Position numbers and translations under genes: made by a program | Assembly: GCA_031289425.1 (NCBI GenBank) | Contig: JAITPM010000114.1 | Span: forward strand, 1-43,046 | Origin: Fusobacteriaceae bacterium | Lineage (GTDB): Bacteria > Fusobacteriota > Fusobacteriia > Fusobacteriales > Fusobacteriaceae | Direction: 5' to 3' | DNA length: 43,046 nt | Notes under the pieces: model-generated | The model's database searches: none | Seen by the model: the letters and a program-made list of their open reading frames with translations, nothing else | Told to the model about the DNA's origin: nothing | In this document: positions 24,462 to 40,721 of the stretch, in pieces | Numbering within the stretch: position 1 is the first letter of the stretch | How the letters are laid out: each line of letters starts with the position of its first letter

Positions 24462-24515
24462 TTTTAAACACCTCTTGATACCTTTGTATTTAAAAAAAAC
24501 CTATATATACCTCTT

Positions 24516-24544
24516 ATGTTACTACAATTTTGGTCTTTTGTCAA
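24516..24544 (-). promoter_or_regulatory. Likely nadE promoter, inside direct-repeat copy 1
   Basis: On the minus strand TTGACA (24544-24539) and TAACAT (24521-24516) are separated by 17 bases, about 55 bases before the GTG start. The -10 box is weak and straddles the end of the repeat; the corresponding hexamer in copy 2 reads TAATAT. Confidence 0.5.
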
Positions 24545-24619
24545 AACGAAAAAGTTTTTTATAAGCTTTAATTTTATAATGTACATTTTTTAGTTTTTTA
24601 GTAAGAAAATAGGAAAAAA
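24519..24619. repeat. 101-bp direct repeat, copy 1 (nadE side of the ToxIN locus)
   Basis: The segment begins TTACTACAATTTTGGTC and ends TAAGAAAATAGGAAAAAA. It is identical to 25374-25474 except for one base (T at 24596, A at 25451). The offset is exactly 855 bases. It fills the gap between toxN and the nadE leader. Confidence 0.95.
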
Positions 24620-24637
24620 TAATAATATAAAAATTTA

Positions 24638-25126
24638 TTAAACATTTTGCTTTTTCATATACAGTATTGCTTTCTCTTCTAATAGTTTGAAGTTACAGCA
24701 CCTTTCTATTATTGGGTTTACTTTTCCAGAATTAACTTCATAATATAATTTTGTTGCTCTATCCCTTATTCTCTTGCTATTTTTATTTATATAACGCATT
24801 TGATTATTCAATAGAGGATACATACTATCTCCAAGTAATTTTAATTTATTGATATTATACTCTATAATAGCTATTTTATTCACAGGAATCATATTATTTA
24901 AATTTATAGCTCCTAGTTTTCCTCCTTCTATTTTAACAAAATCAAGTGTTTCTCTCATCTTTTCATGTTTTAGTTTGGGAGATGTTAATGGAGCAAAATA
25001 TTTAATTTCACCTATTTCAAACAAAATCCCAACATATGGCCTTTTTTCATTCTTATTTTGCGGAACTTTTTTATCATATTTTGCTAAATAGTCAAGATAA
25101 CCATCAGCTAACTTCACCAATATCAT
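24638..25126 (-). CDS. toxN: Type III toxin, ToxN/AbiQ-family endoribonuclease
   Basis: This 162-residue sequence-specific RNase is the toxin of a type III toxin-antitoxin system. Family features are visible in order: MILVKLADGYLDYLAKYD at the start, RPYVGILFEIGEIKYFAPLTSPK (29-51), LDFVKIEGGKLGAINLNNMIPV (61-82) and a helical C-terminus with NQMRYINKN. The open frame continues 30 codons upstream, but those codons run through the antitoxin repeat and hairpin. The ATG at 25126 has GAGGTG 5 bases before it and was chosen. An RNA antitoxin with two repeats and an attenuating hairpin lies just upstream in the same direction. Characterised members block phage growth by abortive infection and also stabilise plasmids. 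Confidence 0.92.
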   Translation of the reverse strand: MILVKLADGYLDYLAKYDKKVPQNKNEKRPYVGILFEIGEIKYFAPLTSPKLKHEKMRETLDFVKIEGGKLGAINLNNMIPVNKIAIIEYNINKLKLLGDSMYPLLNNQMRYINKNSKRIRDRATKLYYEVNSGKVNPIIERCCNFKLLEEKAILYMKKQNV

Positions 25127-25154: not shown

Positions 25155-25177
25155 AAAGACTGGTAATAAACCAGCCC
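25155..25177 (-). terminator. Attenuator hairpin between antitoxin RNA and toxN
   Basis: On the minus strand GGGCTGGT (25177-25170) pairs with ACCAGTCT (25164-25157) including two G-U pairs, with a 5-base loop, followed by TTTAATTT. In type III systems such a leaky terminator sets an excess of antitoxin RNA over toxin mRNA. Confidence 0.75.
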
Positions 25178-25283
25178 TTTCTTTTTTAGCTCCTCGCTTA
25201 TATGGCGGAGGTTCACCGCTTTTTTAGTTCCTCGCTTATTGGTGGAGGTTCACCGCTTTTTGTAATTTTGAATTACTTTTATA
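25155..25283 (-). ncRNA. toxI: ToxI-like antitoxin RNA with two pseudoknot repeats
   Basis: Transcription should begin near 25283. Two full repeat units follow on the minus strand: 25261-25226 (36 bases) and 25225-25188 (38 bases), plus a 7-base start of a third (25187-25181). Each unit has GGTG-AA-CCTC-CACC (CGCC in the second) and then GAGG about 7 bases on. GGTG pairs with CACC/CGCC and the loop CCTC pairs with GAGG, an H-type pseudoknot as in known ToxI units. The A-to-G change in the second unit keeps pairing through a G-U pair. Low repeat number (about 2.2) compares with 2.8 for AbiQ and 5.5 for ToxI of Pectobacterium. Confidence 0.88.
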
Positions 25284-25288
25284 TTAAT

Positions 25289-25316
25289 ATTATACCATAT
25301 GAATATGTTTTGTCAA
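25289..25316 (-). promoter_or_regulatory. Promoter of the toxIN locus
   Basis: On the minus strand TTGACA (25316-25311) and TATAAT (25294-25289), both perfect hexamers, are spaced by 16 bases. It is the strongest sigma-70-type promoter in the window. A short dyad GTAATT-N3-AATTAC (25262-25276) lies in the leader before the first repeat. Confidence 0.85.
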
Positions 25317-25373
25317 TAAATTATCTTTTGGATTTCTAAAAAAATTTGGGTGAGATAAAAACAATATATTATA

Positions 25374-25474
25374 TTACTACAATTTTGGTCTTTTGTCAAA
25401 ACGAAAAAGTTTTTTATAAGCTTTAATTTTATAATGTACATTTTTTAGTTATTTAGTAAGAAAATAGGAAAAAA
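25374..25474. repeat. 101-bp direct repeat, copy 2 (antiporter side of the ToxIN locus)
   Basis: This is the second copy of 24519-24619, with 100 of 101 bases identical and the same orientation. It again carries the minus-strand TTGACA (25399-25394), now followed by TAATAT. On the plus strand it has TTGTCA (25393-25398) and TATAAG (25415-25420) 16 bases apart. Recombination between copies would delete 855 bp including the whole toxin-antitoxin locus. Confidence 0.95.
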
Positions 25475-38149: not shown

Positions 38150-38905
38150 TTATTTTTTATTTGAACGAGTCCTTCCCGTATCGTCGTCTTCCTCATTAAC
38201 AATTAAATCTTTCTCATCAAATAAAACTTTTTTCTCTAATTTTCCATCCTTATCATATATTGATACTTCTTCCTCTACCTTGTCTTTTTTCCAATTTACC
38301 GTTGCCTTTAATTGACCATTTTTATGAAAATATCTCCCAAGTCCGTGTTTAACATCATTTTTATAAGTTACTTCACTCATCAAAACCCCATTATCATAAA
38401 TTTTTTTTAATGTACCATTTATTTTATCATTTTTATAAAATATTCTACTTATAATGTTACCATTTTTATTATATACTATAGCTTCTCCATTTTTTTTATC
38501 TTTTTTATATGGAATTTCTGATTGTATTACTCCATTTTCGTAATAATCACTTACGATTCCATCCAAAACTCCATTTTTATAAGTAACATTTTTTTTCAAT
38601 TTCCCATTTCTATAGTATAATTTGGATAATCCTTCTTTTTTACCTTTTTCGTACCACAATTCTTTTTCAAGTCGTTTATTTTCATAATAACTCTTGAATT
38701 GACCATTTGGAATACCTTTTAAAAAAGTTCCTTCTGTTTCCATTTTACCATTTTCATAAAATCCTTTGATTTTTCCTGTAAATGGTTTATTGGATGATTT
38801 TTCATAAAAGACTCCTTTTTTTTCTATAATATTAGATCTATCTATTTCTGTTGAATATGTAAATACAGATATTATAAATAAAAATAGAATCAGAATTTTT
38901 TTCAT
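38150..38905 (-). CDS. Exported YwqK/MORN_2 repeat protein 1
   Basis: This 251-residue protein has a Sec signal peptide (MKKILILFLFIISVFTYS) followed by about eight units of roughly 22-23 residues. Their core is YYENG-x-x-x-x-E-x-x-x-K-x-x-x-x-G (e.g. GFYENGKMETEGTFLKG, YYRNGKLKKNVTYKNG), the MORN variant seen in YwqK-type antitoxin components. The tail is acidic then basic (NEEDDDTGRTRSNKK). It is the last of three tandem paralogues. The secretion signal argues against an intracellular antitoxin role; a surface or periplasmic scaffold is as likely. Fusobacteria carry many such genes. Confidence 0.85.
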   Translation of the reverse strand: MKKILILFLFIISVFTYSTEIDRSNIIEKKGVFYEKSSNKPFTGKIKGFYENGKMETEGTFLKGIPNGQFKSYYENKRLEKELWYEKGKKEGLSKLYYRNGKLKKNVTYKNGVLDGIVSDYYENGVIQSEIPYKKDKKNGEAIVYNKNGNIISRIFYKNDKINGTLKKIYDNGVLMSEVTYKNDVKHGLGRYFHKNGQLKATVNWKKDKVEEEVSIYDKDGKLEKKVLFDEKDLIVNEEDDDTGRTRSNKK

Positions 38906-38952
38906 AATCTCACCTATTTAAACTAGTTATTTATTTTGAAAATATAAAACAA

Positions 38953-39876
38953 TTAATTATTTATAACAGGAACATCATCCTTAAATTCATTACTTGATAA
39001 AACTTTCCCATCATCACTATACTCTACTGCTTTCCCATTTAATTGGTCGTTTATAAAAGTACACTCTACTTTTATTTTCCCGTTTTTGTGATATTCCTTC
39101 ATTACGCCTTCTCTAAGATCATCCTTAAAAGTCGCTTCTAACCATAATTTACCGTCGTCATAATATTGTTTGAACGTACTATTTTTTTTATTGTTTTCAA
39201 AATTAACTTCCCCAAGCAAATTACCATTTTCATAATATTCTTTATAAAGACCATCTTTAGCATCATTCTTATAATTAGTTTCAATGGAAACTTTGCCATT
39301 TTTGTGATATTCTACTCCCTTACCATTTCTCATATCTTTAGAATAAGCATATTCAGATTTTTTCTTCCCATCTTCATAATATTTTATTTCCAACCCTTCT
39401 ACCATATCATTTACATAAGCAAATTCACTTTTTAATTTACCATTTTCATAATATTCTCTATAAGGGCCACTTAATTTTTCACCATCTACATTACTTTCTC
39501 TTAATATCATTCCATTTGAATAATATTCTTTTATTACACATTTATTCCCATCATATTCTTCCAACATTTGTATAGTACTATTCTCATAGTAATGTTTCCA
39601 CGTACCAATTTTTTTATCGTTTTCAAAATTTCCCTCAGATCGCAATTTACCATTTGTATAGTATCCCTTTGATATACCCGACATTTTTCCATCTTTGAAT
39701 GACACTTCTGTCCTAATATTTCCATCTTTGTAATAACCTTTAGCTATTCCTGTAAATGGAACATTTTTTGTTGTATTATACCAAACATTGTCTTTTTTTT
39801 CCAATTTTGACGAGTCTATAGTAGTGGCTAGCACCCCTAAACTTACTATCATCAATATCCCTAAAATCTTTTTCAT
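38953..39876 (-). CDS. Exported YwqK/MORN_2 repeat protein 2
   Basis: With 307 residues this is the longest of the three paralogues. It has a signal peptide (MKKILGILMIVSLGVLATTID) and about 11 repeats such as YYENGKLKSEFAYVNDMVEG and YYEDGKKKSEYAYSKDMRNG. Unit length is about 23 residues. A free Cys appears in two units (EEYDGNKCVIKEYYS and IKVECTFIND). It shares the N-terminal pattern signal-SSKLEKKDNVWYN-PFTGIAKGYYKDG with repeat protein 1, showing that the genes arose by duplication. The start is ATG after GGAGG. Confidence 0.85.
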   Translation of the reverse strand: MKKILGILMIVSLGVLATTIDSSKLEKKDNVWYNTTKNVPFTGIAKGYYKDGNIRTEVSFKDGKMSGISKGYYTNGKLRSEGNFENDKKIGTWKHYYENSTIQMLEEYDGNKCVIKEYYSNGMILRESNVDGEKLSGPYREYYENGKLKSEFAYVNDMVEGLEIKYYEDGKKKSEYAYSKDMRNGKGVEYHKNGKVSIETNYKNDAKDGLYKEYYENGNLLGEVNFENNKKNSTFKQYYDDGKLWLEATFKDDLREGVMKEYHKNGKIKVECTFINDQLNGKAVEYSDDGKVLSSNEFKDDVPVINN

Positions 39877-39935
39877 TTATTTTTTCCTCCAGACTAGTAT
39901 TTATCTCTTAATTTTTTTTATTTTTTATTTTTTTC

Positions 39936-40721
39936 TCATTTTTTCTTTACATTTTTAGTATTATTCTTTTTTGTATCTTCTTTTTTTGGAGTTTTAGCAT
40001 TCGTATTTACTTTTTTAACTATATCCGTTTTTTCCTCTATTTTGTCCAATTCACCTAGAGAAATTTCTTTATCTGGTTTATTGCTCGTTTTTAAACTTTG
40101 GAATCCTCCGGCAGAAGATTTTTCTCTCCCATCTTCATAGTATTGTTTCCCTTTTCCATTGGCTTTCCCAGCTACATAAGTTATTTCCGAAGCCAATTTT
40201 CCATTTTTATAGTATCTTTTTATAATTCCATTCAATTTATCAGCACTATAATTGAGCTCCGATTCCAATTTTCCATCTTTATTATAATTTTTTTCAGAGC
40301 CTGTTCTTTTGTCATTTTGATATGTCGTTATAGATTGTAATTTTCCATTTTCATAATAAGTTTTCGAAATCCCATTTTTTTTGCCGGCTTTATATGTCCT
40401 CTCAGCTTTCACATTTCCATTTTGAAAGAATTCCTTTATAGGTCCGTCTACAATTCCATTTGTATAATAAATCTCACCTTGTGTTTTCCCATTCTCATAA
40501 TAAGTCCTTGTGAGGCCGTCAAATTTTCCCTTTTCAAAATGTAAGTCAGCTTTTAATTTTCCATTATTATAATAATCTTTTGCTAATCCTGTAAAAAGGT
40601 TTTGAGTATTTTCATAATATGTAAGTCCATCATCCCTTGCTTCTAGTTCAGATATTTTAACAGCAGTTGCCAAAAGAACACTAGACAATAGAACAACTAT
40701 CAAAACAATTAATTTTTTCAT
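39936..40721 (-). CDS. Exported YwqK/MORN_2 repeat protein 3
   Basis: This 261-residue first gene of the tandem array has a signal peptide (MKKLIVLIVVLLSSVLLAT), then about seven repeats (YYENGKTQGEIYYTNGIVDG, FFQNGNVKAERTYKAGKKNG). It then has a different C-terminal third that is Lys/Thr/Asn-rich and repeat-free (from about residue 205, ending in KNNTKNVKKK). That tail is absent from the other two. It starts with ATG after GGGAG and has a good promoter, so it may drive all three genes; gaps between them are about 47-59 bp. Confidence 0.85.
   Translation of the reverse strand: MKKLIVLIVVLLSSVLLATAVKISELEARDDGLTYYENTQNLFTGLAKDYYNNGKLKADLHFEKGKFDGLTRTYYENGKTQGEIYYTNGIVDGPIKEFFQNGNVKAERTYKAGKKNGISKTYYENGKLQSITTYQNDKRTGSEKNYNKDGKLESELNYSADKLNGIIKRYYKNGKLASEITYVAGKANGKGKQYYEDGREKSSAGGFQSLKTSNKPDKEISLGELDKIEEKTDIVKKVNTNAKTPKKEDTKKNNTKNVKKK

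What the first reader, a model, noticed from the sequence alone, without database searches (positions are those of the whole stretch)
25181..25261. Minimal type III antitoxin with two pseudoknot-capable repeats of unequal length
Units of 36 and 38 bases share GGTG-AA-CCTC-(CACC or CGCC) and a downstream GAGG. GGTG pairs with CACC/CGCC and CCTC with GAGG in both; the A-to-G difference is compensated by G-U pairing, which supports the fold. Only about 2.2 units are present, fewer than in characterised ToxI or AntiQ RNAs, and the toxin must process unequal monomers.
Basis: seen in the sequence. Interest (0 to 1): 0.65.

Follow-up and report, generated by a model that had tools for sequence, protein, structure and literature searches.

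The report
Ordinary two-repeat ToxIN toxin-antitoxin module

Summary
On the minus strand, 25181-25261 holds two pseudoknot-capable units between a consensus sigma-70 promoter and an intrinsic terminator. An intact 162-aa ToxN/AbiQ toxin follows (PF13958, E=7.8e-45). The fold is supported by covariation: in 39 aligned units from relatives, 93% of cells pair, 28 cells are changed on both sides, and 0 of 500 shuffles match. The units closely resemble the AntiQ-type units upstream of a Lactococcus plasmid ToxN/AbiQ gene. Corrections: core-to-core spacing is 37 and 38, not 36 and 38 (one base in loop 3); the A-to-G change is a one-sided wobble, not compensation. Unequal units are common. Two-unit arrays are not unusual: a published table lists many toxIN loci with 2.0-2.2 repeats, three in Fusobacterium, and antiQ was reported active with 1.8 repeats. 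New member of a known kind, low interest. Side results of more interest: in Fusobacteriota, single-unit arrays mostly sit beside dead toxins, a three-unit array without toxin exists in another genome, and the cassette is flanked by a 106-bp direct repeat.

The parts
25289..25316 (-). sigma-70-type promoter TTGACA-16-TATAAT (12/12, extended -10 TG) driving the antitoxin and, by read-through, the toxin
   Evidence: consensus match only, not tested by transcription data
25262..25276 (-). small 5' leader hairpin GTAATTCAAAATTAC before the first unit
   Evidence: MFE fold
25219..25261 (-). antitoxin unit 1 with flanking A-run: AAAAAGCGGTGAACCTCCACCAATAAGCGAGGAACTAAAAAA; S1 GGTG/CACC, L1 AA, S2 CCTC/GAGG, L3 AATAAGC
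   Evidence: RNA-model hit 25221-25256 E=2.2e-6, but this unit was in the model's training set
25181..25218 (-). antitoxin unit 2: GCGGTGAACCTCCGCCATATAAGCGAGGAGCTAAAAAAG; S1 GGTG/CGCC (U-G wobble), S2 CCTC/GAGG, L3 ATATAAGC (one base longer)
   Evidence: RNA-model hit 25183-25219 E=1.9e-5 (training member)
25155..25179 (-). intrinsic terminator between antitoxin and toxin, -12 kcal/mol, with an interrupted U tract (AATTTATTTA), suggesting leaky read-through into toxN
   Evidence: read-through is inferred
24638..25126 (-). toxN/abiQ toxin gene, 162 aa, ATG with RBS-like AGAGGTG; conserved LTSPK stretch and RPYVG
   Evidence: Pfam PF13958 E=7.8e-45; PDB 4ato, 2xd0, 7d8o, 4glk; PADLOC AbiQ 8.5e-39; alignment
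24514..24619 (.). 106-bp direct repeat, copy beside nadE (contains the nadE-side TTGACA-17-TAACAT)
   Evidence: D1; only two copies in the genome
25369..25474 (.). 106-bp direct repeat, second copy (98%), on the far side of the TA cassette
   Evidence: D1

Best explanation
A chromosomal type III (ToxIN/AbiQ family) toxin-antitoxin module. One promoter makes a short RNA of about 130 nt holding two 37/38-nt H-type pseudoknot units and ending mostly at the terminator; occasional read-through also transcribes toxN. ToxN cuts the precursor in the A-rich linkers into single pseudoknots, which bind head to tail between toxin monomers (probably a 3:3 triangle) and block the active site. Loss of antitoxin supply, for example on phage infection or loss of the locus, would free the RNase. 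Shown here: the anatomy, toxin homology, unit homology and fold covariation. Inferred from the family: processing, complex, toxicity and phage defence.
For: ToxN_toxin PF13958 E=7.8e-45; solved ToxN, AbiQ and ToxN_Ec homologues E=2e-17 to 1e-10; PADLOC AbiQ. Promoter 12/12, terminator and array in the canonical order. The Lactococcus plasmid ToxN/AbiQ locus L164 has units GCGGTGAATCTCCACCATCAAGTGAGAATCAAAAAA of the same plan and similar sequence, and Fusobacteriaceae L035/G052 has GGTG-AA-TCTC-CACC-AATAAGC-GAGA, a two-sided change. In 39 units, 93.1% of cells pair, 28 cells are changed on both sides against 8.4 shuffled, covariation 0.316 against 0.195, 0/500 shuffles, and slid versions pair at 42-59%. 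This is the only ToxN in its genome with an open full-length frame, which implies that the antitoxin works if the toxin is active.
Against: No expression, processing or toxicity data. ToxI_Pa needed 2.5 repeats in one assay (PMC5086642), so two units could be marginal for some toxins. The terminator's U tract is interrupted. MFE folding without pseudoknots does not recover the structure. Units for the alignment were picked by the S1 pattern, so S1 pairing counts are biased; S2 was not selected on.
Confidence: 0.95

Rival explanations
1. Decaying type III locus: the array has shrunk to two units because the toxin has lost activity, and the RNA now serves little or no antitoxin role.
For: Among AntiQ-like arrays found in Fusobacteriota, single-unit arrays mostly lack an intact toxin (G000:C70, G000:C72, G018, G019, G017), whereas multi-unit arrays mostly have one (7 of 8; Fisher p=0.03, small numbers, selection differs). 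The same genome holds broken ToxIN remnants on three other contigs.
Against: The window's toxin frame, start, RBS and LTSPK motif are intact; both pseudoknots are intact, promoter is 12/12; two-unit arrays with full-length toxin frames exist elsewhere (L039, L044, L052).
Confidence: 0.04
2. Repeats are not an antitoxin but a cis-acting leader or attenuator of toxN, with the pseudoknots acting only on its expression.
For: The array lies just upstream of a terminator in the toxN leader.
Against: Similar head-to-tail processed units are the antitoxin in AbiQ and ToxIN systems; a three-unit array also exists without a toxN downstream (L071), which a cis-element would not need.
Confidence: 0.01

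Closest known systems
AbiQ/AntiQ of Lactococcus lactis (ToxIN family; PDB 4glk)
   Same: Toxin family (E=1.3e-10 to PDB 4glk); a Lactococcus plasmid homologue is about 40% identical with antitoxin units GCGGTGAATCTCCACC-ATCAAGT-GAGAATC of similar sequence and the same pseudoknot plan.
   Different: Three units there, two of 37/38 here; chromosomal here; no phage test here. L164 is a ToxN/AbiQ homologue, not necessarily the characterised AbiQ itself.
ToxIN of Bacillus thuringiensis (4ato) and Pectobacterium / E. coli (2xdb, 7d8o)
   Same: Best solved toxin homologue is ToxN 4ato (2e-17); same promoter-array-terminator-toxin order.
   Different: 2.9 and 5.5 repeats for the Bacillus and Pectobacterium systems (PMC5086642).
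ToxIN loci with about two repeats in Fusobacterium and Firmicutes (Blower et al. survey as tabulated in PMC6315513 Table 3)
   Same: toxIN with 2.0-2.2 repeats of 36-39 nt, e.g. Fusobacterium sp. 3_1_5R, 4_1_13, D12, Eubacterium rectale.
   Different: Exact sequence and genus; their unit sequences were not compared here.
CptIN of Eubacterium rectale
   Same: Type III system with only two genetic repeats; a single repeat suffices (PMC4627078).
   Different: Different toxin family, 45-nt units, heterotetramer.

Membership tests
Type III TA, ToxIN family | Toxin of the ToxN/AbiQ family, full length, conserved active-site stretch | tested here: met
   PF13958 7.8e-45, residues 3-153 of 162 to profile 3-156/159; PDB hits; S-P-K invariant in the LTSPK stretch
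Type III TA, ToxIN family | Tandem array of short (34-39 nt) repeats directly upstream of the toxin on the same strand | tested here: met
   2.2 copies, period 37, 93%
Type III TA, ToxIN family | Promoter before the array, intrinsic terminator between array and toxin | tested here: met
   by consensus only
Type III TA, ToxIN family | Each repeat forms an H-type pseudoknot | tested here: met
   S1 and S2 in both units, covariation across 39 units; no probing data
Type III TA, ToxIN family | Toxin cleaves the array into monomers and assembles with them | not testable with these tools
   needs biochemistry
Type III TA, ToxIN family | Toxicity neutralised by the RNA | not testable with these tools
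   needs expression in a laboratory strain
CptIN / TenpIN families | Toxin matches those families rather than ToxN | tested here: not met
   Only ToxN_toxin hit at E<=0.001 in Pfam; unit length 37/38, not the 45-nt units of CptI_Er

The most novel reading that the evidence does not exclude
Two units may be close to the lower limit for keeping an active AntiQ-type ToxN: in Fusobacteriota, arrays that fall to one unit are seen almost only beside dead or missing toxins, so repeat number may set viability. If true, natural contraction of the array would be a route by which these modules are forced to inactivate their toxin, and solitary units would be the scars, or might serve as trans-acting protection against incoming ToxN.
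Probability: 0.15. Interest if true: 0.45.

Novelty: new member of a known kind. Interest (0 to 1): 0.15.

Why it matters
As a finding it adds one more ToxIN locus with a two-unit antitoxin, in a Fusobacteriaceae genus. Its value is mostly as a compact test case for how many repeats a ToxN needs, together with relatives that have one, two, three or four units of similar sequence, and for the orphan antitoxin units found in related genomes.

Tried and rejected
Rfam at gathering thresholds: no hit anywhere in the window, so no Rfam family covered it at that cutoff. MFE folding of the leader does not show the pseudoknot, as expected for a nested-only method. Close DNA relatives in plasmids: none. 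Pattern GCGGTGAACCTCCRCC in viral contigs gave 24 scattered single matches; contexts were not examined and I treat them as probable chance hits; a stricter unit pattern gave none. Empty-site test for the 106-bp flanking repeat failed: same-genus genomes are too diverged (nadE 63-74% identical) and show no similarity to the repeat. The Blower 2012 survey itself is not held; its data were taken from reviews.

Full report
What is there. On the minus strand of 25155-25316 the order is: a TTGACA-16-TATAAT promoter (25316-25289, 12 of 12 matches with an extended -10), a small leader hairpin, two repeat units, an intrinsic terminator (25179-25155, -12 kcal/mol, z=-4.5), and an ATG with a ribosome-binding-like site that opens a 162-aa frame, 25126-24638. 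The protein is ToxN: PF13958 at 7.8e-45, solved relatives 4ato, 2xd0, 7d8o and 4glk (AbiQ) at 2e-17 to 1.3e-10, PADLOC AbiQ at 8.5e-39. The LTSPK stretch known from the ToxN active site is present (the role of this stretch is from general knowledge).

The repeats. Written 5' to 3' the units are GCGGTGAACCTCCACCAATAAGCGAGGAACTAAAAAA and GCGGTGAACCTCCGCCATATAAGCGAGGAGCTAAAAAA. Each can pair GGTG with CACC or CGCC and CCTC with GAGG, an H-type pseudoknot. TRF reports 2.2 copies, period 37. A strict pseudoknot scan of both strands of the whole window found one tandem pair, this one, and none in 20 Markov-shuffled windows.

Is the fold supported? Within the window the only difference in a stem is U-A to U-G, which is compatible but is not a compensatory change. 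Relatives give real evidence. I took units from viral and genome contigs of Fusobacteriota and other phyla, selecting on the S1 pattern only, and aligned 39 distinct units. With the pseudoknot written out, 93.1% of cells pair (85.5 in shuffles), 28 cells are changed on both sides (8.4), and the covariation score is 0.316 (0.195); no shuffle of 500 reached these, and slid pairings fall to 42-59%. Related sequences can exceed such shuffles without structure, so the shuffle count is not a probability; the slid control and the concentration of changes in S2 carry the argument. Almost all two-sided changes are in S2, which was not selected on: three of its four pairs have them. The nearest relative, G052/L035 (uncultured Fusobacteriaceae), has TCTC/GAGA where the window has CCTC/GAGG.

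Family. A Lactococcus plasmid ToxN/AbiQ locus, L164, has units GCGGTGAATCTCCACCATCAAGTGAGAATCAAAAAA, so the window's antitoxin is an AntiQ-type ToxI. ToxN relatives were found in 25 of 98 Fusobacteriota genomes at E<=0.001, 20 of them above the family cutoff, in 161 plasmid records, in two phage records and in 23 genome loci of the GTDB set, mostly Firmicutes.

Is it minimal or unusual? No. A published table lists toxIN loci with 2.0-2.2 repeats in many gut bacteria, including three Fusobacterium strains (PMC6315513). CptI of E. rectale has two genetic repeats and one is enough (PMC4627078). antiQ was reported active with 1.8 repeats and ToxI_Pa with 2.5 (PMC5086642). In my set, L039, L044, L052 and the Fusobacterium phage phiFN37 locus (L165) also show two units, and L008 has one unit beside a ToxN frame with a long C-terminal extension. 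Unequal lengths in one array are common (for example 34/35 spacing in L043, 35/37 in L046, 37/36 in L034).

How it most likely works. By homology: the short RNA is made in excess because of the terminator; read-through supplies ToxN; ToxN cuts the A-rich linkers and the freed pseudoknots bind between toxin molecules in a closed ring and block the active site; shortage of antitoxin frees the RNase. Two units per transcript are not a stoichiometric problem, because complexes can draw on several transcripts. None of these steps was tested here.

Side observations. (1) The same genome holds further broken ToxIN loci: G000:C70 (L003, one unit TCTC/GAGA, toxin cut short), G000:C72 (L106, one unit, then an 18-codon ToxN-like stub) and G000:C26 (L002, toxin with five stops). 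(2) In Fusobacteriota, single-unit arrays are mostly without an intact toxin: G000:C70, G000:C72, G018 (a ToxN-like start running into an unrelated short protein), G019, G017; one exception is G020. Multi-unit arrays have an intact toxin in 7 of 8 cases; Fisher p=0.03 with small, unevenly sampled numbers. This does not show cause. (3) G026:C52 (L071) has three units and a terminator with no toxin gene, starting inside a short ORF next to a resolvase-like gene (the resolvase label is by eye); phage escape by pseudo-ToxI or acquired ToxI is known in another system (PMC5086642), so a protective role is possible but untested. (4) The cassette is bracketed by a 106-bp direct repeat, 98% identical, that includes the promoter-like sequence beside nadE; the genome has only these two copies. 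It suggests recent gain by a duplication or recombination event, and gives a route to loss; the empty site could not be shown.

Verdict. Real, correctly recognised as a type III antitoxin, and ordinary for its family.

Noticed in passing
window 24514-24619 and 25369-25474: 106-bp direct repeat (98%) brackets the ToxIN cassette and includes the promoter-like sequence beside nadE; unique to this place in the genome.
   Followed up: partly
L071:1471-1577 (G026:C52): Three AntiQ-like units plus terminator with no ToxN gene downstream or above cutoff elsewhere in that genome; the array begins inside a short ORF with its own ribosome-binding site, beside a resolvase-like gene.
   Followed up: partly
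L003 (G000:C70), L106 (G000:C72), L002 (G000:C26): Further decayed ToxIN remnants in the window's own genome, two of them with a single intact-looking antitoxin unit.
   Followed up: yes
L093 (G018), L096 (G019): Single antitoxin units with terminators whose toxin is gone or replaced; in G018 a ToxN-like N-terminus runs into an unrelated 103-aa protein.
   Followed up: partly
L008 (G020:C29) and L163 (Fusobacterium polymorphum plasmid pKKCOM1330A): ToxN with long C-terminal extensions (about 290 codons each) instead of about 160-170 aa.
   Followed up: no
window 38150-40721: Three neighbouring minus-strand genes for signal-peptide-like proteins built of repeated 'YYENGKL'-like motifs (MORN-like by eye).
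   Followed up: no
L165 (Fusobacterium phage phiFN37): A phage record carries a ToxN gene with a two-unit antitoxin of a different sequence class beside structural genes.
   Followed up: no
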